DNA of 64,000 nt, from positions 1 through 64,000 of the forward strand of contig JAGUXT010000032.1 of assembly GCA_020061705.1 (NCBI GenBank). Reading direction: 5' to 3'. Below are positions 3,241 to 43,299 of this stretch, piece after piece. A program made the position numbers and the translations under genes. Origin of the DNA: Halothiobacillus sp. Its GTDB lineage: Bacteria; Pseudomonadota; Gammaproteobacteria; Halothiobacillales; Halothiobacillaceae. The notes beneath the pieces were generated by a model, which did no database searches, was not told the origin of the DNA, and saw only the letters and a program-made list of their open reading frames with translations. The stretch's first letter is position 1. Each line of letters starts with the position of its first letter.

Positions 3241-4866
3241 ATGGAAAAGCCATTTGCTATTACCCTGGATCCCGGCACCTCGCTCTCCAACCACACCGGC
3301 AGTTGGCGTACTGAACGCCCGGTCTATGTACATCGCCTGCCGCCCTGCAATAACGGCTGCCCGGCAGGCGAGGATATTCAGGGCTGGCTGTTTCACGCCG
3401 AAAGCGGCGACTATGAAAAAGCCTGGCACAAGCTGACCGAGAACAACCCCTTTCCGGCGATTGTCGGACGCGTCTGCTACCACCCCTGCGAATCGGCCTG
3501 CAATCGTGGGCAGATCGACGAAGCCGTCAGCATTCACGCGGTTGAGCGTTTTCTGGGTGACGAGGCGATCAAGAAAAACTGGGCTTTCCCGCTTCCCGTA
3601 CAGAAAAGCGGCAAGCGCGTGCTGATTGTTGGTGCCGGGCCCTCCGGCCTGACCGCCGCCTACCATCTTGCATGCCTGGGTCATGATGTCGAAATCCATG
3701 AGGCCGGCCCCATGGCGGGCGGCATGTTGCGTTTCGGCATCCCGCAATACCGCCTGCCACGCGACATTCTTGATGCCGAAGTCAAACGCATCCTCGACAT
3801 GGGTGTCACGCTGCATCTCAACCGCAAGGTCGAGAACGCTTTGACCGCCATGCAGGAAGGCGGCTTCGATGCGGTGTTCCTCGCCATTGGCGCGCACATT
3901 GCCAAACGCGCCTATATTCCCGCTGGCGCGGCCGCGCATGTGCTGAATGCCGTCAACGTGCTACATGATCTGGAAACGGGCGAAAAGCCACTGCTCGGCC
4001 GTCGCGTGGTGGTCTACGGTGGCGGCAACTCCGCCATCGACGTCGCCCGCACCGCCAAGCGTCTGGGCGCAGACGAGGCCGTTATCGTCTACCGCCGCAC
4101 CCGCGATGCCATGCCCGCCCATCCGTCCGAAGTGCATGAGGCCGAAGCGGAAGGCGTGCTGATCCGTTGGCTAACCACCATCACTCAAGCCGAAGAAGGC
4201 GAGCTGACCATCGAAAAAATGTGCATGGATGATGATGGTTCGCTACAGCCAACCGGTGAATTCGAGACGCTGCAAGCCGATTCGCTGGTGCTGGCGCTGG
4301 GGCAGGATGTTGATCTGGGTTTGCTGGAGCATGTGCCCGGTATCGAAATCGAAGGCGGCGTGGTCAAGGTTGGCGAAAACATGATGACCGGCTGCGAAGG
4401 TGTCTTCGCCGGTGGCGACATGGTGCCGTCCGAGCGCACCGTGACCGTCGGCATCGGACACGGCAAACTGGCCGCGCGCAATATTCACGCCTGGCTCAAT
4501 GGCGAAACCTGGGTACATCCGCCGCGTCCGGCGATTGCCACGCTCGACCGCATTAATCGTTGGTATTACAGCGAAGCGCCCAAAGTCGTCCAGCCGGAAC
4601 TGGACGCCGTGCGCCGCATGAACGGCTTTGAGGAAGTCGTGCAAGGACTGAACGCCGACAACGCCCTGTTCGAGGCGCGGCGCTGTCTTTCCTGCGGCAA
4701 CTGCTTCGAGTGCGACAACTGTTACGGCGTCTGCCCGGATAACGCGGTCAAAAAACTCGGCCCCGGCAAAGGGTTTGAATTCGATTACGACTTCTGTAAG
4801 GGCTGCGGCATTTGTGTGGCAGAGTGCCCCTGCGGAGCCATCGACATGGTGCCGGAGGATATTTGA
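3241..4866 (+). CDS. GltD-like NAD(P)H flavoprotein fused to 2[4Fe-4S] ferredoxin
   Basis: This protein probably passes electrons between NAD(P)H and the Por complex. Residues 30-90 hold the N-terminal cysteine clusters of GltD-type proteins (CNNGCPAGEDI, CYHPCESACNRG). VLIVGAGPSGLTAAYHL near 123 binds FAD, and VVVYGGGNSAIDVARTAKRLG near 255 is the NAD(P) fold. The last 65 residues form a two-cluster ferredoxin with CLSCGNCFECDNCYGVCP and CKGCGICVAECPCGA. The ferredoxin part replaces a separate PorD delta subunit. No glutamate synthase large subunit is nearby, and the 3-base gap from porB makes a Por-specific role much more likely than glutamate synthesis. Confidence 0.85.
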   Translation: MEKPFAITLDPGTSLSNHTGSWRTERPVYVHRLPPCNNGCPAGEDIQGWLFHAESGDYEKAWHKLTENNPFPAIVGRVCYHPCESACNRGQIDEAVSIHAVERFLGDEAIKKNWAFPLPVQKSGKRVLIVGAGPSGLTAAYHLACLGHDVEIHEAGPMAGGMLRFGIPQYRLPRDILDAEVKRILDMGVTLHLNRKVENALTAMQEGGFDAVFLAIGAHIAKRAYIPAGAAAHVLNAVNVLHDLETGEKPLLGRRVVVYGGGNSAIDVARTAKRLGADEAVIVYRRTRDAMPAHPSEVHEAEAEGVLIRWLTTITQAEEGELTIEKMCMDDDGSLQPTGEFETLQADSLVLALGQDVDLGLLEHVPGIEIEGGVVKVGENMMTGCEGVFAGGDMVPSERTVTVGIGHGKLAARNIHAWLNGETWVHPPRPAIATLDRINRWYYSEAPKVVQPELDAVRRMNGFEEVVQGLNADNALFEARRCLSCGNCFECDNCYGVCPDNAVKKLGPGKGFEFDYDFCKGCGICVAECPCGAIDMVPEDI

Positions 4867-4903
4867 TCCGCCACGTACTTACTTCCAATGCAGGTCGTCC
4901 CAA

Positions 4904-5033
4904 AGAACCTGCTCACGATCTTTTTGAAGCTAAAAATTCTTCGTGAAACGACGCTGTAGGTGCGAACTCATTCGCACCTACACGTTTTTGGCGACCATTT
5001 TCCATTCAATGACGAGATCGTGAACAGGTTCTA
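4904..5033. repeat. MITE-like palindromic element, copy 1
   Basis: The gap between the por operon and rhlE is almost filled by an element with imperfect terminal inverted repeats (AGAACCTGCTCACGATC at the left, its near complement at 5016-5032) around an inner palindrome at 4955-4982 (TGTAGGTGCGAA arms). Its right half, read in reverse, closely matches 38173-38232 over about 60 bases, including the string GGAAAATGGTCGC. It carries no ORF. Confidence 0.75.
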
Positions 5034-5102
5034 ATCCGAGCCACCTTCGGGCTCACCCCATCGACGCGTTAGACTAGTGCGCCCTTCACCCAGCGATCCT
5101 CC

Positions 5103-6362
5103 ATGCCATTTATTTCTCTGGGTCTCTCCCCCTCGCTGCTGCGCGCCGTCAGTGCCAAGGCTTACACACAGCACACACCGATTCAGGCCGCCGTGATTCC
5201 GGGTGCCTTGCAAGGCCGCGACGTGCTGGGTTCGGCGCAGACCGGCTCCGGCAAGACGATGGCGTTTGCCTTGCCGCTGTTGCAGCAACTGGAGCAGAGG
5301 CCGCTGGAGAATCCTCGGCGGGTTTTCGGCTTGATTGTGCTGCCCACGCGTGAGCTGTGCACCCAGGTCGGCGAGGAGATTCTGGCCTTGGCGGCGCATC
5401 TGTCGCGGGCGGTGAGGGTCTCCGTCGTGTTTGGCGGCGTGTCCATCAACCCGCAAATGCTGCGTTTGCGCGGTGGCACGGACATTGTGGTGGCCACGCC
5501 GGGGCGCTTGCTGGATTTGTTGGAGCACAACGCCCTCAGCATCAGCCAAGTCAAAACGCTGGTGCTGGATGAGGCCGACCGTCTGCTTGATCTGGGCTTT
5601 GCCGACGAGTTGGGGCGCATTTTGCAGTTATTGCCCGAGCGGCGCCAAAACCTGTTTTTCTCCGCCACTTTCCCGCCTGCCGTGCAAACGCTGGCGAACA
5701 TGCTGTTGCACGACCCGCTGCGGGTGGAGGTGCAGTCCGAGCCAGAAAGCGCGCCGGACATTGAGCAACGCACCATCGCGGTCGATAACGGGCGGCGCAC
5801 GCAATTGTTACGCCACCTGATTCAACAACACCATTGGAGCCGGGTGTTGGTGTTTGTCGCCAGCAAGCACGCCGCCGAAATCGTGGCCGAAAAACTGCGC
5901 AAGGCGCACATCAACGCGGAGCCGTTTCATGGTGATTTGAGCCAGGGCAAGCGCACGCAGGTGTTGGCGGACTTCAAAGCCTCGCGCCTGCGCGTAGTGA
6001 TCGCCACCGACGTGGCGGCGCGTGGTCTGGACATCGCGCAATTGCCGGTGGTGGTGAACTTTGACCTGCCACGTTCAGCGGTGGACTACACGCACCGCAT
6101 CGGGCGCACCGGACGTGCGGGAGAATCAGGCGTGGCGCTGAGCTTTGTCAGCGCCGATAGCGAGGCGCATTTCCGCTTGATTGAAAAGCGCCATGGATTG
6201 CGTGTGCCGCTGGAACAGATTGAGGGCTTCGAGCCCGTGCAGACGGCTCGGGTGGTCGCGCTGTTATCCGAGCAAGACTTGTTTGACCGCGCCAACGGCG
6301 GCATCAAGGGCAAGCGCCCCAGCAAGAAAGACAAGCTTCGGGCAGCGGCGCGCGAGCAATAA
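5103..6362 (+). CDS. rhlE: DEAD-box ATP-dependent RNA helicase, RhlE type
   Basis: A cytoplasmic RNA helicase that remodels structured RNA, in other bacteria linked to ribosome assembly or RNA decay. Motifs appear in order: Q motif (F3, TPIQAAVIP), Walker A AQTGSGKT, DEAD in VLDEADRLLDLGF, SAT (FFSATFP), and HRIGRTGRAG. The C-terminal tail after the helicase core is short and basic (KGKRPSKKDK) and lacks an RNA-recognition domain, as in RhlE rather than DbpA/DeaD. 419 residues. It converges with dbpA across a repeat-filled gap. The closest named relative is RhlE; the exact subfamily is inferred. Confidence 0.85.
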   Translation: MPFISLGLSPSLLRAVSAKAYTQHTPIQAAVIPGALQGRDVLGSAQTGSGKTMAFALPLLQQLEQRPLENPRRVFGLIVLPTRELCTQVGEEILALAAHLSRAVRVSVVFGGVSINPQMLRLRGGTDIVVATPGRLLDLLEHNALSISQVKTLVLDEADRLLDLGFADELGRILQLLPERRQNLFFSATFPPAVQTLANMLLHDPLRVEVQSEPESAPDIEQRTIAVDNGRRTQLLRHLIQQHHWSRVLVFVASKHAAEIVAEKLRKAHINAEPFHGDLSQGKRTQVLADFKASRLRVVIATDVAARGLDIAQLPVVVNFDLPRSAVDYTHRIGRTGRAGESGVALSFVSADSEAHFRLIEKRHGLRVPLEQIEGFEPVQTARVVALLSEQDLFDRANGGIKGKRPSKKDKLRAAAREQ

Positions 6363-6423
6363 ATCAATTCAACTGATTGATCTTTAGTACTTTTATGGAG
6401 CCCTCCGTGAGCACCACAGAACC

Positions 6424-6526
6424 ACTTCCCCCTTTATAAAAGGGGGATCGAGGGGGATTTGGTCGTATTTTAGAACGTGCCACGGCTTCAAATCCCCCCT
6501 ACCCCCCTTTTCCAAAGGGGGGGAAT
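6424..6526. repeat. CCCCCTTT-type inverted repeat, copy 1
   Basis: Two G/C-homopolymer palindromes face each other: 6425-6460 (CCCCCTTTATAAAAGGGGG followed by a G-rich tail) and 6489-6524 (C-rich stretch then TTTTCCAAAGGGGGGG). The two arms are roughly complementary, so the whole region can fold into one long hairpin. A second copy is at 15121-15221. It lies between convergent rhlE and dbpA and could help end transcription from either side. Confidence 0.7.
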
Positions 6527-6556
6527 AACGTCATTTAACACGGTCGAAAACAGGCT

Positions 6557-7978
6557 CTAAATCAACCGCACCCGCACACTCTTGCCCTTGACCTTGCCCG
6601 CGTTGAGTTTTTGCATGGCTTCATGCGCAATCTCGCGTTGCACCGCCACAAAGGTGGTGAACTCGGTCACGTTGATTTTGCCAATTTGCTCGCGGCTGTA
6701 ACCGGCATCGGCGGTCAGCGCACCGAGCACATCGCCGGGGCGAATCTTCTCTTTGCGGCCGCCCTGAATCTGCAAGGTCACCATCGGCGGGCGCAGCGCC
6801 CCCTCGCCGGTAGGGTGCAGATCGTCCACCTTGTGCCAGACCGATTCGCACTGTTGGTACTGTTCAATCCTGCCGACCGCGCCCATTTCGTTCATGGAAA
6901 CCAGGTTCAGCGCCAGACCCGACTCACCCGCGCGCCCGGTGCGACCAATGCGGTGGATGTGAATCTCGGCATCCGGCGTGATGTCCACGTTAATCACCGC
7001 TTCCAGTTGCGTAATGTCCAGCCCGCGCGAGGCCACGTCGGTCGCCACCAGCACCGAGCAACTGCGGTTGGCAAACTGCGCCAGCACTTGATCGCGCTCG
7101 CGCTGTTCCAGATCGCCATGCAACACCAGCGCGACGAAACCCTGCTCTTGCAGCAGCGCCACCAGATCGTTGCACTGCTGCTTGGTATTGCAAAACGCCA
7201 GCGTGCTGACCGGGCGGAAGTGGTTCAACAGCCGCGCCACCGTGTCCAGCCGGTTTTGGCGGGTTACTTCGTAAAAGCGCTGCTCGATCAGGCTCTCGGC
7301 CTGCTGCGATTCGACCGTGATTTGCAGTGGATCGCGCATGAACTGCGTCGCCAGTCTTTCGATGCCTTCCGGGTAGGTGGCGGAAAACAGCAGGGTTTGC
7401 CGCCGTTTCGGGCATTGCTGGATGACGGTTTCAATGTCATTAAAAAAGCCCATGTCCAGCATACGGTCGGCTTCGTCCAGCACCAGCGTATTGAGTGCGT
7501 CCAGATTCAGATACCCGCGCTCCAGATGATCCATCACGCGCCCGGGCGTGCCGACCGCGATGTGTGCGCCGTGCTCCAGCGTGATTCGTTGACCGCGCAA
7601 GGGCACGCCGCCGCACAGGGTCACGACCTTGATATTTTCCTCGGCGCGCGCCAAACGCCGAATTTCGACCGCGACCTGATCGGCCAGCTCACGCGTGGGG
7701 CACAGCACCAGCGCCTGCACCGCAAAACGGCGCGGGTTGAGGTTGGTCAACAATGGCAGAGCAAAGGTGGCGGTTTTGCCGCTGCCGGTCCTGGCCTGCG
7801 CAATAATGTCCTTGCCCAGCAGGGCGGCAGGCAGGGCAGCGGCCTGAATCGGGGTCATTTCCAGATAGCCCAGTTGCTGCAAATTGTCGAGGGTGGCGGG
7901 GTTCAGCGCCAAGCTAGCAAAGCTGGTACTGGAAGGCGGGGCGGCGGCATCAGCCACCTGGGGTTCTGGAGTGTTCAT
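6557..7978 (-). CDS. dbpA: DEAD-box RNA helicase DbpA
   Basis: An ATP-dependent helicase that in E. coli acts on 23S rRNA helix 92 during 50S assembly. Helicase motifs ARTGSGKTATFALPLL, LVLDEADRMLDMGFF, LLFSATYPEG and HRIGRTGRAGESG are all present. The last ~75 residues (from GRKEKIRPGDVLGAL) form the DbpA-specific RNA-binding domain, which sets it apart from the neighbouring rhlE product. 473 residues, a little longer than E. coli DbpA because of a 17-residue Ala/Pro-rich N-terminus. The stop codon TAG lies at the tip of a sequence (AGAGCCTGTTT) that resembles ends of the repeat family seen at 4904 and 38173. Confidence 0.9.
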   Translation of the reverse strand: MNTPEPQVADAAAPPSSTSFASLALNPATLDNLQQLGYLEMTPIQAAALPAALLGKDIIAQARTGSGKTATFALPLLTNLNPRRFAVQALVLCPTRELADQVAVEIRRLARAEENIKVVTLCGGVPLRGQRITLEHGAHIAVGTPGRVMDHLERGYLNLDALNTLVLDEADRMLDMGFFNDIETVIQQCPKRRQTLLFSATYPEGIERLATQFMRDPLQITVESQQAESLIEQRFYEVTRQNRLDTVARLLNHFRPVSTLAFCNTKQQCNDLVALLQEQGFVALVLHGDLEQRERDQVLAQFANRSCSVLVATDVASRGLDITQLEAVINVDITPDAEIHIHRIGRTGRAGESGLALNLVSMNEMGAVGRIEQYQQCESVWHKVDDLHPTGEGALRPPMVTLQIQGGRKEKIRPGDVLGALTADAGYSREQIGKINVTEFTTFVAVQREIAHEAMQKLNAGKVKGKSVRVRLI

Positions 7979-8203
7979 GTTGTGATTGTAACCTTTGTTT
8001 ATGGGTTGACCGATTCAAGGGGGTCTAAACCCTACAAAACATCCCCCGGCCAGGGCTCGATGCCACTTGATACATGGTTGTTGTCGGGGGATGACTACCC
8101 TCCCACAAAGCAAGTGCACAATTCCCGTTAACTGGATAGGTGAATTCAGCTATATTCAGCAGAGATTAGAAAGCGCTATTCACACCCGAGCAGAGGCACG
8201 CGC

Positions 8204-8401
8204 ATGACGGCGACCAGACCACGCAGAGAAGCCTTACGCCGCAAGACCGGGTTGAGCCTGTTACGTACCTTGATGCCTGCTTATGACGGATTGATCCAGC
8301 GCTTCGCCCAGCGCCACGATGTCCTCTCTTCGAAGCTGATCCTCATGGCACGCGATACCGAAGACGGCACCCTGGTGCGCATTGCATGGAGCCACCCCTG
8401 A
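8204..8401 (+). CDS. 65-residue ORF coupled to the c-di-GMP gene
   Basis: This short, basic, unrecognised ORF ends in TGATG, so its stop overlaps the start codon of the next gene by one base. That arrangement is typical of translational coupling. A weak ribosome site (AGAGG) precedes the ATG. The protein has no membrane segment or cysteine motif, begins with a positively charged stretch (RPRREALRRK) and has a helical middle. The segment RFAQRHDVLSSKLILMARD could form two helices. It may be a real regulator or only a leader peptide that controls entry to the large gene. Confidence 0.4.
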   Translation: MTATRPRREALRRKTGLSLLRTLMPAYDGLIQRFAQRHDVLSSKLILMARDTEDGTLVRIAWSHP

Positions 8402-11400
8402 TGCCCGTACTGAATGTGTTGCACCGCCTGCTGCTTCAAGGAAGCCTTGAAAAGCGCATTCGCCTCGCCGCCTTCGGCCTGTCCATGCTGCTGCTCGCTA
8501 TCTTTGGCGTGGTGGCCATGTGGACACAAATGATTCACACACAAAAAGAACAGCATGATGCTCAGGAAACCACCCTGCGACTTTTAAGTGGCCAATTGTA
8601 TTTCGGCCTTGAACACCGGCTTAACGTCATGAAAAAGCTTGGCAACAACCCGATTCTTTGGACGGCCATCTCCGACGCTCACGAGCGTGAGGACTATTTA
8701 AAGAACTTACTCGCAAGCCATAACATCAGTCATGACGATGTCATGCCCATCAGCCTTTTTGACTATCACGGACGCTGGATTTGCGGGGAATACACTCAAG
8801 GGATGCCTGCGGCGAACGCGCCCGACGCATTAGTTAATAGAGCACTGAAATCACGACAACCCAAGAGCGCGCTGATTCTCGGCAATTCACCACACCTGCT
8901 GCTGGCCTTTCCTGTGAACACCCCCTACACCGAGGGAAGCATTGGCGTGCTACTTGGCAACCTATTGTTGGACGAGTTATTTGGACACCCTCTTAGCAAC
9001 CTGAGTGATGGACTGGGCTATGTGATCCGCATCAACGACGAGGTGCTATTCACGTCTTCGCCCCTGAGCACACAACGCCATTATCCAATAACTTCCACAC
9101 TGATCCACCCGGACTTTCCGGAACTATTCCAGATTCAGATTGAGCTATTTGGTACCCGATCCGCCTGGCATAACCTGTTGGTCAAGCAAGGGCTCTTGTT
9201 TCTTCTTACCGTTGTAATTTTAACCGGGGGCATCTGGTTGATCGCTGGCCTGCTGGCACGCGGACTCACCCGGCGACTTAGGCGGCTGACCGATGCCATC
9301 AGTACCCTTCCCCGGCCACAGGGTAGACAGATCCCGCTGGACGCGAGAGGCGACGAAATCAGCCTGCTGGCGCAAGCACTCAAAGATGCGCTGACCAAGC
9401 AGGAAGACATGACCGCGCGCCTGGAAGATTTGGTGGCCGCGCGCACCCGCGAGCTGAGCGTCAGCCAGGAGCGCTATCGACTGGTGATCAAGGCCAGCCA
9501 GGATGGCATCTACGACTGGAATATCATCACGGGCGAGTGTTTCTTTTCGTCGCGCTGGAAATCCATGCTCGGTTATGGCGAAGACGAGCTGAGCGATGCC
9601 TTCGAAACCTTTGCCGGGCGTCTGCACCCGGACGACAAGGCAAACATACTTAGCAAACTCGACGCGCATCTGCAGGGCGACGACAGCACGCTCTCACAAA
9701 CCGAATTCCGCCTGCGCCACAAGGACGGCTCCTGGCGCTGGATTTACTCGCGCGGCATCGTGCTGCGCGATGCTGAGGGCACGCCCTATCGCATGGCGGG
9801 TTCGAATTCCGACATCACCGAACGCAAAAAGGACGAAGCCACCCTGCGTAAGCTGTATACCGCGATTGAGCAGGCGCCGGCCACGGTGGTGATCGCCAAT
9901 CTGGATGCCAGTATCGAATATGTCAATCCACGCTTTACCCAGATCACTGGCTACACAGCAGAAGAGGCGCAAGGTCAAAATCCGCGCATTTTGCAATCCG
10001 GGCACACCAGCAAGGAAAGCTATCAGCAGATGTGGGGTGCGCTGACACATGGGCGCGTGTGGCAAGGCGAGCTGGAAAACAGGCGCAAGAATGGTGAGTT
10101 TTACTGGGAAGACATCCAGATTGCTCCGGTCAAGGATGCTGCAGGTGTCACCACGCACTATGTTGCAGTCAAGATCGACATCACCAAACGCAAACACATG
10201 GAACAGAAACTGGTCGAAAATGAGGCCAAGTATCGCGCCCTGTTTGAAAACAGCCTGTTCCCCACTCTGATGACCGACCCGGTCGCGGGACGGATTCTGG
10301 CCGCCAACCAGGCCGCGCTGGACTTGTTTGGCGCCAGCGAGGATGAATTGCGCGCACGCCCACGCAGTGAACTGATGGACATGAGCGACCCACGCTTGCA
10401 GGTCGCCATTGCTCAGCGCACACAGGTCGGACGCTTTCAGGGCGAGCTGACCGTGTTGGGGCCGAATGGCAGTAAAGTCCCTGTTGAACTTTCATCTGCG
10501 ACTTTCAAAGGCGCGGACGGACGGCTTTTATCGAACATGGTGATTCGTGACCTGACCGCAATCAAACGCAATGAAGAGAGTCTGCGTCTGGCAGCAAACG
10601 TGTTCACCCATGCCCATGAGAGCATCATCATTGCCGATGCCGAAGCCAGGATTATCGATGTCAACGCCACCTTCACCCAGATCACCGGCTATACCCGCGA
10701 CGAGGTTTTAGGCCAAAGCCCGCACATTCTCAGCTCTGGGCAGCAGGATGCCGCGTTCTATGAATCCATGTGGCGCAAAATCCGCGAAACGGACTTCTGG
10801 CAGGGCGAAGTATGGAATCGACGCAAGGATGGCTCATTTTATGCCGAATGGCTCACCATCTGCAGCATCCGCGACAGCCGGAACCAGATCACGAACTACC
10901 TCGCCATTTTCTCGGATGTCACCGAGCAAAAAGAGCATCAGCGCTACATCGAACATATCGCGCACTATGATGCCCTGACCGGCCTGCCCAATCGTGTGCT
11001 TTTGCGCGATCGCTTAACGCAGAGCATGGCCTCGGCAGTGCGCCATAATCGCCCGCTGGCCGTCGCCTACCTCGACCTGGATGGCTTCAAGACCATCAAC
11101 GACAGTCATGGTCACAGCGTGGGCGACAAGCTGCTCACACAGGTCGCCAACAGAATGAAACTGGCGGTACGCTATGGCGACACGGTCGCGCGCATGGGCG
11201 GTGATGAGTTTGTCGCCGTGTTGCAGGATCTGGAGGGAATCAACAGCAGCGTAGCCCTTGTCCTGCGCTTGCTGAGCGCTGCGTCCCAGCCGGTCGAAAT
11301 CAACGGTTTGAGTATGCGTGTATCGGCCAGTATCGGCGTGGCCTATTTCCCGCAACAGGACGATGTCGATGCCGACCAGCTTTTGCGCCAGGCCGACCAG

Positions 11401-35267: not shown

Positions 35268-35377
35268 AGGACTTACGCAAAAGTGTTCCGGCAAGACAAA
35301 GTTTTGATGTCAGTACTTAGTAAGCTTGGTACGGAGAGGCCGCTTTAACGCAGCTGGGGCGGTTTTGCGCTAGCCCT
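35268..35377. repeat. MITE family A, copy 2
   Basis: A ~110-bp element running from AGGACTTACGCAAAAG to the complementary right end near 35363-35377. It shares its core with copies at 12646, 50479 and 60550. The right part is read as coding sequence: it supplies the last ten codons and the stop of the kinase-Rieske gene. Confidence 0.8.
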
Positions 35378-36583
35378 GAAAATAACTTGCCCACGTTCCA
35401 CGCGCAGACCAATGCGGGTCAGCGACTCACCTTCGCACGGCCCCGCGAAACATCGCCCACCCTCAATATCAAATAATGCACCGTGCAGAGCACAGCGAAT
35501 GTGCCGTCCGTCCTCATCCAAAAACGTATCGGCGGTCACGTTGAGCTCAGCACTCAAATGCGGGCAGTTGTTGAGGTAACCATACGCCTCCAACCCCTGA
35601 CGCACCACAAAAATGGCGCGCATTACCCCGCCATCCTCAACCTCAAAACCCCGTGCACCCGGGTCGGGCAGGCTATTCAGAGGGCATAGAACATTCTCCT
35701 GAGCGGCAAGCGGTGTCAGCAAACCATCCAGGCCAAACTGTCCAACCTTGCGCCCGGCCAGCTGGCAGGCATCGACCAGCGCATCGGCCAATGAGCGCCC
35801 GGAGAGCATGGCGTGAATCAAGCCCGCGTTAAATGTGTCGCCTGCGGCCAAAGTGTCTATGACTTCAATCGGCGGAAACGCCGGGCTGTGGAGCAACTGA
35901 TTATTTTTGGAGAGAGCCCAGGCACCCCGCTCGCCCCAGGGCAGTATCAAAATCGCCTGCGGAGCCCAGCTGCGCGCCTCACGCAAGAAGTCCTCCGGCA
36001 GAGCAAAACCACGCCCCTGCACAAAAGCGCGCGAAAAGATGATGATGTCCGGGTACTCCCAAAGCGCCTCCAATCCTTCGCGCTCTTTCTCCACCTCCAG
36101 AGAAATCGGCTGGTCAGTCACAACGCTGCGTGCAAAGGCCAGCATCACCGCCAAATCATCACAGTTTCGCGCTTCAAAGTGCAGCCAGTCGCAGGAATCA
36201 ATGCCGTCGATATCCATGAAATCGCTGATGGAAAACTCAGCCAGATCACGATAATGCACAATGCTGCGCGAGCCGTTTTGTTGATTCAGCAGGATATAAG
36301 AGGTTGGTGCCGCACCGTGCTCAATGCGGCGCGCATGGCGTAAATCCACACCGCGCAATTCAAGTTCACTGGCAATACGGCGGCCATTCATATCACCGGC
36401 CAATGCCCCTGCCAGGCGGCACTCATGCCCGGCCTGCGCCAAGATACTCAACGTATTAGCCGTATTACCGCCCACGCGCACGGCCTGCGCCAGTGCGCGA
36501 ACTTCACTATCCTCCGCCGGATAGCCGTCCACCGTGTTAATAATATCAAGCGTGGCAATGCCCGTGCCTAGAATGCGTGCCAT
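35345..36583 (-). CDS. PfkB-type sugar kinase fused to a Rieske [2Fe-2S] domain
   Basis: Residues 1-300 form a ribokinase-family kinase; the start GTGIATLDIINTVDGYPAEDSE followed by RVGGNTAN resembles ketohexokinase. The ATP/anion-hole motif is DTLAAGDTFNAG, with AAGD in place of the common GAGD. Residues ~315-405 form a Rieske domain with C340-P-H and C364-A-L-H cluster ligands. The last ten residues (RASAKPPQLR) come from the overlapping MITE. The frame is uninterrupted across the joint, so the fusion looks genuine. Its substrate and redox role are not known. Confidence 0.8.
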   Translation of the reverse strand: MARILGTGIATLDIINTVDGYPAEDSEVRALAQAVRVGGNTANTLSILAQAGHECRLAGALAGDMNGRRIASELELRGVDLRHARRIEHGAAPTSYILLNQQNGSRSIVHYRDLAEFSISDFMDIDGIDSCDWLHFEARNCDDLAVMLAFARSVVTDQPISLEVEKEREGLEALWEYPDIIIFSRAFVQGRGFALPEDFLREARSWAPQAILILPWGERGAWALSKNNQLLHSPAFPPIEVIDTLAAGDTFNAGLIHAMLSGRSLADALVDACQLAGRKVGQFGLDGLLTPLAAQENVLCPLNSLPDPGARGFEVEDGGVMRAIFVVRQGLEAYGYLNNCPHLSAELNVTADTFLDEDGRHIRCALHGALFDIEGGRCFAGPCEGESLTRIGLRVERGQVIFRASAKPPQLR

Positions 36584-36616: not shown

Positions 36617-37159
36617 TTAATCACGAAAAGCATGGATGTCCACGCGCCAATCCGAGGGTGTCGCAACCAACACCAGACACGAAGGCGCGCCATGGGTGCG
36701 GGTAAAGCCCGCCGCGCCGGGATTCAGCACCCAGGGTTGAGTACTGTCGTCCACCACCAGGCGATGCGTGTGGCCGTACACAATGGCGCGTGCTTCCGGG
36801 TAGCGATCGCGCAGAGCCTGATGCCGCCGGTAGGCCGGGTTGACCCGATGCCCATGCACCACAACAATCACACCGCCCGGCACGTCAAGACTCAGGTACT
36901 CCGGCAAAACGCGCAAACAGCGCTCCGTTCCTCTTGGCCATTGCTCCGGGGTGTCATTGTTGCCACGCACCGCCAACACGCGTCCACTTTTCGGCAAAAG
37001 CCGAGCCAAAACCTCCGGTGAGCCAATATCCCCCGCATGAACCACCAAATCACAGCCTTCAACAACCTCGGCAATGCGCCGATCGACTGCATTGTGAGTA
37101 TCCGAAAGCAACGCTATCCGCAGGCTGGGCGGTTCGGCGGTAGGTGGCGTGAGCGGCAT
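36617..37159 (-). CDS. Calcineurin-like metallophosphoesterase (YfcE/MJ0936 type)
   Basis: A 180-residue cytoplasmic phosphodiesterase. The metal-binding motifs are complete: SDTHN, HAGDIGS, RGNND, VVHGH and YGHTH, ending NPGAAG. ATG 37159 is chosen; the open frame continues to 37258 with sequence unlike the family. Natural substrate unknown. It lies 33 bases upstream of the kinase-Rieske gene on the same strand. Confidence 0.82.
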   Translation of the reverse strand: MPLTPPTAEPPSLRIALLSDTHNAVDRRIAEVVEGCDLVVHAGDIGSPEVLARLLPKSGRVLAVRGNNDTPEQWPRGTERCLRVLPEYLSLDVPGGVIVVVHGHRVNPAYRRHQALRDRYPEARAIVYGHTHRLVVDDSTQPWVLNPGAAGFTRTHGAPSCLVLVATPSDWRVDIHAFRD

Positions 37160-37322
37160 TGAATCAAGCTCAGTTGGGGGTCGGATTGGGCGATTGCATT
37201 TGCGCGAGCCGGCTTCAACGCACCGCAAGGCAAACACACACCCAGCAGCATAGCGCATTTGCCAGATACGGTCTCACCGCGCACCATGGGGTATATTTCC
37301 CACATTTAAGCAACCCCACGCC

Positions 37323-38290: not shown

Positions 38291-38376
38291 TTTTTTTGGC
38301 GGCCTGACTTTGTATTGCGCATGCAACATCCTTGCGCAACACTCAGCGCACAACAGGGCTGACTTGGGTTTACGAC

Positions 38377-41300
38377 ATGCGCAACATGATTCTCGCGGCG
38401 ATTGCCGCACTGCTCTTGGCCACGCTGGCCTATTTCGTCTTTCAGCCAACGGACAAGCCGCCCACGAGCTTGACGGCATCCAGTACCGCGCAAAGCTCAC
38501 CGCCCGTCGCACCGCGCTCCGGTGATTTAACCGCGACCACGCCGCCTGCACAAAATCCCCCGAGCGATGCGTTGCGTTTCCAGCGCCTGTTAATTGACCC
38601 CAATAGCGAAGCCAATGAAGTTTGTCTGATTTTTTCCGCGCCGCTGCAATCGGGCGAGCGTGTGCGTTATGCCGATTATTTGCGCCTTGAACCTGCCATC
38701 AAGGTCGATGTGCGCATCGAAGAGGCGCGTCTGTGCCTGAGTGGTTTGAGCTTTGGGGTTGAATACCAGCTTGAACTGCTGGCTGGCCTGCCCGCTAAAG
38801 ATGGTTTGAAACTTGGCGATAGCGTGCAGCTTCCCCTCAGCCTGGGCGACCGCAGCGCTTCGGTGCGTCTGGGTTCCGGGTTTGTGCTGCCCATCAACCA
38901 CGATGAAGGCCTGCCCGTCACCACCATGAATGTGGACAAGCTGAATCTGAAGCTGTTTCGAGTGGGCGACCGCCTGCTGGCGCGGATGCGCGAGGATTTT
39001 GTCGATGAACGCACCATGTACCCGTATCAGGCCGAACAGATCGCCGAAGACGAAGGTCGCCTGGTCTGGAGCGGCAGCATGACCGTGAGCGCCGAGCGCA
39101 ATATCGCCAAAACCAGCCTGATTCCCATTCAGGAGGCCATCGGCAAGCGAGAGCCGGGCGCCTATTTGCTGGTGGCTGGCGATGCCGCCAAGGACACCGC
39201 CGTAGAAAATGAAGATGACTATTACGACGAAGAGCGCGGACGCATGGCGGCGCAGTGGATCGTGCAATCCGACCTGGGTCTGACGTCGTTCCGTGGTGCC
39301 GATGGCCTCACCCTGCTGGTGCGCTCCCTGCGCGACGCCACACCCGTGGGTGACGTGCGCGTGAGCCTGATTGCGCGCAACAACGATATTCTGGGTGAAG
39401 CCAGCAGTGATGCGCAGGGCGTGGTGCGTTTCCCGGCGGGCTTGTTGCAGGGGCAGGGCGGCATGGCCGCGGTCATGCTCATGGCCTATCATAAGGATGA
39501 TTTCAATTTCCTCGACCTGCGCCGCGCGCCGTTCGACCTGTCTGACCGCGGTGTGGACGGGCGTGCGCCATCCGGGCCGGTGGATGCGTTTTTGTACAGC
39601 GAACGCGGTATTTACCGCCCCGGCGAAACGGTGCATCTGACCGCGTTGGCACGCGATGCCCAGGCCAAGGCGCTGCCGGAGAGCACTCTGATCCTCAAGC
39701 TCATGCGCCCGAACGGCCAGGAAGCGCGGCGCTTTACCCTCAAGGCACAAGGCGAGGGCGGAGCAGCCCTGGCGGTTCCATTGCCCTTGACCGCTGCACG
39801 CGGCGGCTGGGAAATCACTGCGCATACCGACCCGGATGCGTCGCCCGTGGGGCGCCTGAGCTTTGAAGTGCAGGACTTTGTGCCGCAACGTCTGGCGCTG
39901 ACCATTCTGGACAAGCCCAAAGTGCTGAGTGCGGGTGAAAACCTTGCCATTCCGCTGGAGGCACGCTTTTTGTATGGCGCGCCGGCTGCCGCACTGAGCG
40001 GGGAGGGCGACCTGATTCTGGAGACCGACCCTGCCCCCTTCCCCATGCACAAGGGGTTTCGATGGGGTGATGAGGACGAGGTCTTCCAGGGCGAGCGCGT
40101 GAGCTTGCTGGTAGGCGAAACCGATGCCGCTGGCAAGACCACGGTCACCGGCCAGGTACCGGGCACGATTCAAAGCTCGCGCCCGCTGCGCGCGGATATT
40201 GCGCTGGCGATCCGCGAGCCGGGTGGGCGGGCAACAGGTGAGCATGTTTACGTCCCCGTGCATGTGCAGTCCTTGGCGCTGGGGCTGCGCCCGACCTTCG
40301 AAGGGGCGGCCAGACAGGGTGCCGACGCGCTGTTCGAGTTGATCACGGTGGACAGCCACGGCGCGCGCGTGGAACAGGGCGGTCTGGAATACCGCTTCAT
40401 CAAGGACGAATCCACCTGGCAATGGCATCGCCGCGACAATCAGTGGCGCTACGAGCGCGTGGTGCGTGAACGTGAGCTGGCCTCCGGTACATTGAATGTC
40501 GCCAAGGACAAGCCGGCCGTGCTCAAACAACAGGTGAGCTGGGGCAACTACCGCCTGATTGTGCGCGACCCGGCCAGCGGGGCGCAGACCAGCCTGCGTT
40601 TCTGGGGCGGCTGGTATGGTGAAGCCACGGCAGAGCGCCCGGATCGTCTGCCGATTGCGGCTGACAAAGCCGGTTATGTCGCTGGCGAAACCGCCAGGCT
40701 GCACATCGATGCCGAGTTCGCTGGTCAGGCTCTGATTGTGATGGCCAACGAGCGCGTGCATGAGGTACGCAATGTCAGCGTGCCCGCTGGCGGCGCGGAT
40801 GTGGAGATTCCGGTGCGCGCCGAGTGGGGCGCAGGTGCCTATGCGCTGGTCACGCTGTATCGCCCGTTGAACGCCAAGCTCGGTCATGCGCCGGTGCGCG
40901 CCGTGGGCGTGGCCTGGCTGGGGCTGAACCCGCAGGAGCGCACCCTGAAGGTGGCGATTGATGCGCCGGGCAAGATTGCGCCGCGTCAAAAGATCGAAGT
41001 TCCGGTAACGATTTCCGGCCTGACAGCGGGCGGCAAGGCGGCGTATGTGACGCTGGCGGCGGTCGATCAGGGCATTTTGCAACTCACACGCTTCAAGACT
41101 CCAGCACCGCAGGCGCATTACCTGAGCAAGCGCCAGTTGGGCGTGGGCATGCGTGATGATTACGGACGTTTGATTCGCGGCCTGAATGCCGGTGGTGACG
41201 ATCAGGGCGGCGATGCCGACGGCGGCAAGGGGCTGGACGTGGTGCCGACGCGCACCGTGGCGCTGTTCTCCGGTCTGGTGAAAACTGATGCGCAAGGCAA

Positions 41301-43299
41301 GGCGCATATCCCGCTGGATGTGCCTGATTTTCAAGGCGAACTGCGCCTGATGGCGGTGGCCTTCGATGCCGAGAAAATGGGCTCCGGCGAGATGCGCATG
41401 ACCGTGCGCGACCCGTTGGTGGCCGAGCTGATTCTGCCGCGCTTCCTTGCGCCGGGCGATACCGGGCGCTTGACCACCTTGCTGCATAACGTCGAGGGCG
41501 CGGCGGGAGCCTACACGCTGAAAATCAGCGCCAGCGGCGCAGTCAGCGGCGGCGAGTCGTCGACTCTGATCGAGCGCAGCATTCAGCTCGCCGCAGGCGC
41601 GCGCGAGGTGTTCACCCTGCCCTTGCTGGGCAAGGATGCGGGCATTGGCCAGGTGGTGATGAACCTCAGCGGCCCGGCGCAGGCCGATGGTAAGGCCTTC
41701 AACGTGACCCGCGACTGGCCGATTCAGGTGCGTCCGCCGCAAGCCGTACAAAGCCGTGAAAACACCGAGCTTCTGGCCGCCGGACAATCCGTGGTTCTGG
41801 ACAGGACACTGCTTGATGGCTTTGTGCCAGGCACGGAGCAGGTATCCCTGAGCCTGTCGCGTTTCGCCGGGCTGGATGTGGCGGGGCTGCTGCGCTGGAT
41901 GGATCGTTATCCCTTCGGTTGCCTGGAGCAAACCACCAGCCGTGCCATGCCACTGTTGTATTTCAACGAGATGGCCAAGGTCAGCGGGGTGCGTCAGGAT
42001 CGCGGCCTGGATATGCGTGTGCAAGTGGCAATTGACCATGTCCTCGCCATGCAGCAGGTCAATGGCGGCTTCAATATGTGGGGGCCGTGGGGCAATAGCG
42101 CCGACCCGTGGATTAGCGTCTTCGCCCTGGACTTTTTGCTACGCGCCGCCGACAAGGGATTTGATGTGCCGCAAGCGCCGCGTCAATTGGGGCAGCAGTG
42201 GTTGAGCTCTGAGGCCATGCGCGATAGCCGTGCCGATGTGCGCGCCTATGCGGCGGCGCTGCTGGCGCGTCTGGGCAAGGTCAACGCCAGCGACCTGCGC
42301 TATTTTCACGACCAGAATCCGCCCTCCGATCCGGTTGGCTGGGCGCATTTGGGCGCGGCACTGGAAGCCATCGGCGAGCGCGCGCGCGCCAATCATGCTT
42401 TCAATGCGGCGAAAGAGCTGCTGGCCAAGCCGGGCAGCTACAAACCTGCGCCGTATGGCTCTTACTTGCGCGATGTGTATGCGGTAGCGGCGATCATGGC
42501 GCAGGCCGGGCGTAGCTCCGCCGTGCCGTCGATCCTGGCGCTTGCCCCCACGCGGGGCATCGAAGCGGGGCGTTACGGCCTGGATTACACCACCACGCAG
42601 GAAAAGGCGTGGATGCTCCTCGCTGCGGCCGATATCGGACGCAATGCCGGAAAAATCGCGGTCGAAGTCAATGGCACGCCGGTACCCAAGGGTGATCCGG
42701 CGTCAGTCACCATCGAAGCGGCAGCGCTGGCCGGTACGCGCCTGAATAATGTCGGCGAGAGCGAGGTGTTCCGCATCCTGTCGGTCGAAGGCGTGCCGCG
42801 TGAACCCTTGCCCGCCATGTCCGAAGGTCTTCGCCTGAGCAAGCAGGTGTTCAGCCTGAGCGGTCAGCCGGTGAATTTGCAGCAGCTTCCGCGCAACGAA
42901 CGTTTCGTGGTGGTGATTGAAGGCGAGTCGAACCCACGTATGGGCGGTGATTATGCCGTGCTTGATCTTTTGCCTGCGGGCTGGGAAATCGAAGGCATGT
43001 TGCGCCCGGAACAGGCAGGTTACGCCTGGCTGGGCGAACTGTCCGAAGCGCAAATGCGCCAGGCGCGGGATGATCGCTACCTTGCAGCCATCAGCCTGCC
43101 CAACTACGTGATGGATCGTAGCGACCCGGACTATCCAACGCGTGATTACAGCAAGGAAATCTGGAGCTTCAAGCTGGCCTACGTGGTGCGCGCGGTCACA
43201 CCGGGACGCTTCGCCCTGCCCGCTGCCAACGCCGAGCATATGTACGCGCCGCGTGTTCGCGCTCGTACCGCGATGGGTGAGTTGAATATTGTGGAGTAG
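38377..43299 (+). CDS. yfhM: Bacterial alpha-2-macroglobulin
   Basis: A 1640-residue periplasmic protease trap. A single N-terminal hydrophobic helix (ILAAIAALLLATLAYFVF) acts as signal anchor; there is no lipobox Cys, unlike E. coli YfhM. A chain of macroglobulin domains follows, including the YSERGIYRPGETV segment common to bacterial forms. The thioester motif GCLEQ sits near residue 1181 in FGCLEQTTSR, followed by the helical thioester domain. ATG 38377 is preferred over 38332 because it starts right at the anchor. It pairs functionally with the PBP1C gene downstream, as in other proteobacteria. Confidence 0.9.
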   Translation: MRNMILAAIAALLLATLAYFVFQPTDKPPTSLTASSTAQSSPPVAPRSGDLTATTPPAQNPPSDALRFQRLLIDPNSEANEVCLIFSAPLQSGERVRYADYLRLEPAIKVDVRIEEARLCLSGLSFGVEYQLELLAGLPAKDGLKLGDSVQLPLSLGDRSASVRLGSGFVLPINHDEGLPVTTMNVDKLNLKLFRVGDRLLARMREDFVDERTMYPYQAEQIAEDEGRLVWSGSMTVSAERNIAKTSLIPIQEAIGKREPGAYLLVAGDAAKDTAVENEDDYYDEERGRMAAQWIVQSDLGLTSFRGADGLTLLVRSLRDATPVGDVRVSLIARNNDILGEASSDAQGVVRFPAGLLQGQGGMAAVMLMAYHKDDFNFLDLRRAPFDLSDRGVDGRAPSGPVDAFLYSERGIYRPGETVHLTALARDAQAKALPESTLILKLMRPNGQEARRFTLKAQGEGGAALAVPLPLTAARGGWEITAHTDPDASPVGRLSFEVQDFVPQRLALTILDKPKVLSAGENLAIPLEARFLYGAPAAALSGEGDLILETDPAPFPMHKGFRWGDEDEVFQGERVSLLVGETDAAGKTTVTGQVPGTIQSSRPLRADIALAIREPGGRATGEHVYVPVHVQSLALGLRPTFEGAARQGADALFELITVDSHGARVEQGGLEYRFIKDESTWQWHRRDNQWRYERVVRERELASGTLNVAKDKPAVLKQQVSWGNYRLIVRDPASGAQTSLRFWGGWYGEATAERPDRLPIAADKAGYVAGETARLHIDAEFAGQALIVMANERVHEVRNVSVPAGGADVEIPVRAEWGAGAYALVTLYRPLNAKLGHAPVRAVGVAWLGLNPQERTLKVAIDAPGKIAPRQKIEVPVTISGLTAGGKAAYVTLAAVDQGILQLTRFKTPAPQAHYLSKRQLGVGMRDDYGRLIRGLNAGGDDQGGDADGGKGLDVVPTRTVALFSGLVKTDAQGKAHIPLDVPDFQGELRLMAVAFDAEKMGSGEMRMTVRDPLVAELILPRFLAPGDTGRLTTLLHNVEGAAGAYTLKISASGAVSGGESSTLIERSIQLAAGAREVFTLPLLGKDAGIGQVVMNLSGPAQADGKAFNVTRDWPIQVRPPQAVQSRENTELLAAGQSVVLDRTLLDGFVPGTEQVSLSLSRFAGLDVAGLLRWMDRYPFGCLEQTTSRAMPLLYFNEMAKVSGVRQDRGLDMRVQVAIDHVLAMQQVNGGFNMWGPWGNSADPWISVFALDFLLRAADKGFDVPQAPRQLGQQWLSSEAMRDSRADVRAYAAALLARLGKVNASDLRYFHDQNPPSDPVGWAHLGAALEAIGERARANHAFNAAKELLAKPGSYKPAPYGSYLRDVYAVAAIMAQAGRSSAVPSILALAPTRGIEAGRYGLDYTTTQEKAWMLLAAADIGRNAGKIAVEVNGTPVPKGDPASVTIEAAALAGTRLNNVGESEVFRILSVEGVPREPLPAMSEGLRLSKQVFSLSGQPVNLQQLPRNERFVVVIEGESNPRMGGDYAVLDLLPAGWEIEGMLRPEQAGYAWLGELSEAQMRQARDDRYLAAISLPNYVMDRSDPDYPTRDYSKEIWSFKLAYVVRAVTPGRFALPAANAEHMYAPRVRARTAMGELNIVE

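What the first reader, a model, noticed from the sequence alone, without database searches (positions are those of the whole stretch)
35345..36583. Sugar kinase-Rieske protein fusion
A ketohexokinase-like PfkB domain and a complete Rieske cluster-binding domain share one open frame. Redox control of a sugar kinase, or cluster-dependent targeting, would be new. Position next to a phosphoesterase and glycosyltransferase hints at sugar phosphate metabolism.
Basis: partly seen in the sequence, partly recalled or inferred. Interest (0 to 1): 0.62.

Follow-up and report, generated by a model that had tools for sequence, protein, structure and literature searches.

The report
Ketohexokinase fused to Rieske ferredoxin
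A bacterial relative of the human fructose-phosphorylating enzyme ketohexokinase carries an iron-sulphur (Rieske) domain at its tail in a whole family of sulphur-oxidising bacteria; elsewhere the two are neighbouring genes, so they probably work together, in a way nobody has yet tested.

Summary
Window 35345-36583 (minus strand) is one 412-codon frame: an N-terminal PfkB kinase (residues 3-285) and a C-terminal Rieske [2Fe-2S] domain (about 298-403) with complete CPH...CALH ligands. The kinase is specifically ketohexokinase-like; all six human residues checked (D15, N42, N45, R141, K174, D258) are conserved.

It is not an error. 25 of 26 kinase-bearing genomes of the same family, several in one contig, carry the full fusion with invariant ligands, under purifying selection in both domains. 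In 369 Gammaproteobacteria sampled, kinase and Rieske genes are fused or adjacent on one strand in 38 of the 59 genomes holding both. Trees place fusions on three branches (at least two changes forced). So the fusion records an old two-gene operon. In many lineages it follows a gene for an FGE-sulfatase-domain protein.

The Rieske belongs to a subfamily with a C-x2-GPC motif in all 64 copies examined. I found no paper describing the pair.

Functional linkage is well supported. The mechanism is not: I favour redox-gated or redox-reporting ketose 1-phosphorylation (about 0.35), against a Rieske electron carrier that merely travels with the kinase.

The parts
35345..36583 (-). Kinase-Rieske fusion gene, 412 aa
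   Evidence: single ORF; fused in 25 family genomes
35729..36577 (-). PfkB / ketohexokinase-like domain, residues 3-285 (D13, G39-N40, N43, R106, R139, K166 and catalytic D249 of A247-G248-D249)
   Evidence: PF00294 E 2.2e-30; mammalian ketohexokinase E about 1e-57 in PDB by sequence and best by fold, E 2e-30; residues invariant in 101 sequences
35693..35728 (-). Short linker, residues 286-297
   Evidence: between the domain borders and the conserved Rieske start near 'LCPL'
35375..35692 (-). Rieske [2Fe-2S] domain, about residues 298-403; ligands C-P-H-x21-C-A-L-H, then C-F-A-G-P-C
   Evidence: PF00355 E 1.3e-07; ligand motif and C-x2-GPC in all 64 copies extracted
36617..37258 (-). YfcE-type metallophosphoesterase, upstream, same strand, 33-nt gap
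   Evidence: PF12850 E 1e-32 and TIGR00040 above its cut-off; upstream of the fusion in all family loci examined, absent at the non-family loci checked

Best explanation
The gene encodes a ketohexokinase-type ATP:ketose 1-phosphotransferase whose C-terminus is a Rieske ferredoxin of the C-x2-GPC subfamily. SHOWN: one intact, selected reading frame; conserved catalytic and ketose-pocket residues; complete 2Fe-2S ligands; relatives in which the two are adjacent, co-oriented and often abutting genes; more than one fusion event on the tree. INFERRED: the two products act in one process. INFERRED, weakly: the Rieske cluster, possibly with the conserved nearby Cys pair, couples the kinase to cellular redox or O2 state by switching or tuning it, or by reporting its state, so that ketose 1-phosphate formation follows electron-carrier supply in these respiring, sulphur-oxidising bacteria. 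My split: architecture 0.97, functional coupling 0.8, redox gating as the specific mechanism 0.35.
For: Intact fusion in 25 family genomes, including single-contig ones, with invariant CPH...CxxH. 369-genome class sample: kinase in 102, Rieske in 141, both in 59 (39 expected, Fisher p 2.5e-6, not corrected for phylogeny); 38 of the 59 fused or adjacent on one strand, Rieske downstream in 37. The fused label needs 3 changes on the kinase tree, 2 forced by well-supported branches. Residues matching human D15, N42, N45, R141, K174 and D258 are invariant in 101 sequences; mutation of D15, N42 or N45 inactivates human KHK-A (PMC11332825). No oxygenase or reductase among the neighbours identified, which leaves direct kinase-Rieske coupling as a simple option.
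Against: 43 of 102 kinase genomes lack a detected Rieske of this subfamily and 82 of 141 Rieske genomes lack the kinase, so neither needs the other for basic function. One family MAG (L040) has a decayed Rieske remnant beside an intact kinase region. No experimental data; most of the Rieske half of the model is below pLDDT 50, so no interface can be read. Substrate not known.
Confidence: 0.42

Rival explanations
1. The Rieske part is an ordinary electron-carrying ferredoxin for a separate enzyme encoded elsewhere. The kinase belongs to the same pathway, and fusion only fixes stoichiometry or location, with no allosteric effect on the kinase.
For: The Rieske occurs without the kinase in 82 genomes and beside other genes: an FGE-sulfatase-domain protein, ABC transporter and UPF0047. 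Its nearest solved relatives are dioxygenase ferredoxins. Kinases without it keep all catalytic residues.
Against: No electron acceptor or reductase is consistently beside it among the neighbours identified; the most frequent third partner, the FGE-domain gene, has no match for its N-terminal part in 26 of 27 family genomes that (bar one) keep the fusion.
Confidence: 0.33
2. The pair is the soluble end of a larger membrane-linked system: a cNMP-binding, rhodanese and FGE-like domain protein, then kinase, Rieske and an ABC-2 transporter. The Halothiobacillaceae fusion is a streamlined remnant of it.
For: 26 genomes have the FGE-domain gene upstream of the kinase and/or Rieske on the same strand; ABC ATPase and permease follow in L069 and L088; L093 and L102 have Rieske followed by an ABC ATPase.
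Against: Most kinase-Rieske pairs, including all family fusions and the f54 fusions, are not beside it.
Confidence: 0.15
3. The Rieske fold is kept as a structural or docking module without a working cluster.
For: The Rieske part evolves somewhat faster than the kinase (dN 0.136 against 0.070 for L001).
Against: All four ligands and the C-x2-GPC motif are invariant in every copy extracted.
Confidence: 0.05
4. Sequencing error or chance read-through of two genes in this assembly.
For: None in close relatives; some distant relatives do have two abutting genes in one frame separated by a single stop (L044, L046, L047).
Against: 25 family assemblies carry the fused frame; purifying selection on both parts.
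Confidence: 0.01

Closest known systems
Ketohexokinase (fructokinase of vertebrates, PfkB family; PDB 2hlz, 2hqq, 3nbv)
   Same: 38% identity over the kinase domain by fold alignment; same pocket and catalytic residues
   Different: Bacterial; carries a C-terminal Rieske domain; substrate not tested
Rieske-type ferredoxins of aromatic dioxygenases (PDB 3gce, 5bok, 1fqt)
   Same: Rieske fold family and CxH...CxxH ligands
   Different: Distant (E 0.001-0.01); ligand spacing 21-27 here; extra C-x2-GPC motif; no dioxygenase partner found; fused to a kinase
Other PfkB kinases (E. coli sulfofructose kinase YihV, ribokinase, ribose-1-phosphate kinase)
   Same: PfkB fold
   Different: Far weaker matches than ketohexokinase

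Membership tests
PfkB / ribokinase-like carbohydrate kinase | PF00294 above curated cut-off; AGD catalytic motif | tested here: met
   106.5 bits against 25.8; A247-G248-D249 invariant in 101 sequences
Ketohexokinase | Best sequence and fold match is ketohexokinase | tested here: met
Ketohexokinase | Fructose-pocket residues D15, N42, N45, K174, R141 and base D258 | tested here: met
   equivalents D13, N40, N43, K166, R139, D249 invariant in 101 sequences
Ketohexokinase | Phosphorylates fructose at C1 | not testable with these tools
   needs an enzyme assay
Rieske [2Fe-2S] domain | PF00355 above curated cut-off | tested here: met
   31.9 bits against 20.3
Rieske [2Fe-2S] domain | Two Cys and two His cluster ligands CxH...CxxH | tested here: met
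   inter-motif spacing 21-27, longer than the textbook 15-17 (recalled, not tested)
Rieske [2Fe-2S] domain | Bound 2Fe-2S cluster | not testable with these tools
   needs EPR
Dioxygenase-system Rieske ferredoxin | Neighbouring oxygenase and reductase subunits | tested here: not met
   none among the neighbours identified here

The most novel reading that the evidence does not exclude
A sugar kinase switched directly by a built-in Rieske cluster: ketose 1-phosphorylation gated by redox or O2 state, which would be a regulatory use of a Rieske domain.
Probability: 0.33. Interest if true: 0.82.

Novelty: new variant of a known kind. Interest (0 to 1): 0.55.

Why it matters
Rieske domains are known as electron carriers in respiration and oxygenases; a conserved, repeatedly fused partnership with a ketohexokinase would point to a new role, and to a bacterial function for an enzyme family studied mainly in mammals as a fructose-metabolism drug target. 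It gives a Rosetta-stone link between two gene families, testable with one purified protein.

Tried and rejected
(1) Sequencing error or split genes: rejected. (2) Link to sucrose metabolism: sucrose-phosphate synthase exceeds its cut-off in 18 of 27 family genomes but not in the window's own genome, while the fusion stays, so sucrose synthesis is not required. (3) Glycosyltransferase and PAP2 neighbours as functional hints: found next to the fusion only within the window's genus. (4) Structure of the whole fusion: kinase good, Rieske mostly below pLDDT 50 because only three fused sequences were in the alignment; no interface inferred. (5) Papers: no description of a Rieske-PfkB or ketohexokinase-Rieske pair in the library; subscription journals are not covered. 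(6) Phylum-wide sample: 2 of 398 genomes matched, too few to show a wider spread.

Full report
OBSERVATION. The minus-strand frame 35345-36583 runs without a stop for 412 codons. Pfam finds PfkB at residues 3-285 (E 2.2e-30) and Rieske at 322-386 (E 1.3e-07), both above cut-off. The Rieske part has CPH-x21-CALH followed by CFAGPC.

KINASE IDENTITY. NCBIfam gives only sub-threshold matches to several PfkB equivalogs. PDB sequence search is led by mammalian ketohexokinases (E about 1e-57; next, sulfofructose kinase, E 2e-13), and the AlphaFold model's kinase half matches human ketohexokinase best (E 2e-30, 38% identity). Human residues whose mutation abolishes activity (D15, N42, N45) or reduces activity or substrate affinity (R141, K174), and the catalytic base D258 (PMC11332825), correspond to D13, N40, N43, R139, K166 and D249, all invariant in 101 homologues. 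It therefore probably phosphorylates a ketose at C1; the substrate is inferred.

NOT AN ARTEFACT. In the window's family 26 of 27 genomes have the kinase; 25 have the full fusion with intact ligands, several as single-contig genomes. The family is identified as Halothiobacillaceae from the titles of the nearest public records. The exception, L040 from a 64%-complete MAG, shows a decayed Rieske remnant after the kinase. dN/dS is low in both domains.

ORIGIN. In 369 sampled Gammaproteobacteria the kinase occurs in 102, the Rieske subfamily in 141 and both in 59; 38 of those 59 are fused or adjacent on one strand, Rieske downstream in 37. Many pairs abut or overlap; in L044, L046 and L047 the two frames are in phase with a single stop between them. 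One-frame fusions occur in the window's family plus G172, in f54 (three genera) and in G081. On the kinase tree the fused label needs 3 changes, at least 2 forced by well-supported branches; the bootstrap had not fully settled. This is the neighbour-gene-then-fusion pattern and the strongest evidence of functional linkage. Counts are by genome and not corrected for phylogeny.

RIESKE SUBFAMILY. All 64 copies extracted (fused, adjacent, stand-alone) have C-x2-GPC after the second ligand pair, and the inter-motif spacing is 21-27. Five further copies were missed by the extraction filter, not scored as lacking it. Nearest solved relatives are dioxygenase ferredoxins, only distantly.

WIDER CONTEXT. 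In 26 genomes a gene for an FGE-sulfatase-domain protein lies upstream of the kinase and/or Rieske on the same strand; the L069 copy also has cNMP-binding and rhodanese domains and is followed by kinase, Rieske and ABC-2 transporter genes. In 26 of 27 family genomes the cNMP/rhodanese part has no match, so the fusion is kept without it. Within the family a YfcE-type phosphoesterase is upstream at every locus examined; GT and PAP2 genes are genus-specific.

MECHANISM. Coupling is well supported; its nature is not. Because each gene also occurs without the other, the Rieske is unlikely to be needed for catalysis. Options are redox gating or reporting (favoured, about 0.35), a pathway-mate electron carrier (0.33), and a remnant of the FGE/ABC system (0.15). 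The model cannot decide.

NOVELTY. Both parts are known families; the combination, its recurrence and its operon were not found in the paper library. Hence a new variant of a known kind.

Noticed in passing
L069 (G384) 3293-11034; also L070, L088, L102, L107, L111, L100, L108: Recurrent gene cluster in Gammaproteobacteria: FGE-sulfatase-domain protein (L069 copy with cNMP-binding and rhodanese domains), sometimes UPF0047, then ketohexokinase-like kinase and/or Rieske, often then ABC-2 transporter genes. Function unknown.
   Followed up: partly
L040 (G006 contig 44): The only family member with a kinase but without an intact fusion: Rieske tail decayed by stops and frame changes (incomplete MAG, so error not excluded).
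   Followed up: partly
window genome G000: No sucrose-phosphate synthase above the family cut-off, although 18 of 27 family genomes have one: patchy presence within the family.
   Followed up: partly
window 38332-43299 +: 1655-aa frame with a GCLEQ motif that looks like a bacterial alpha-2-macroglobulin (read by eye, not searched).
   Followed up: no
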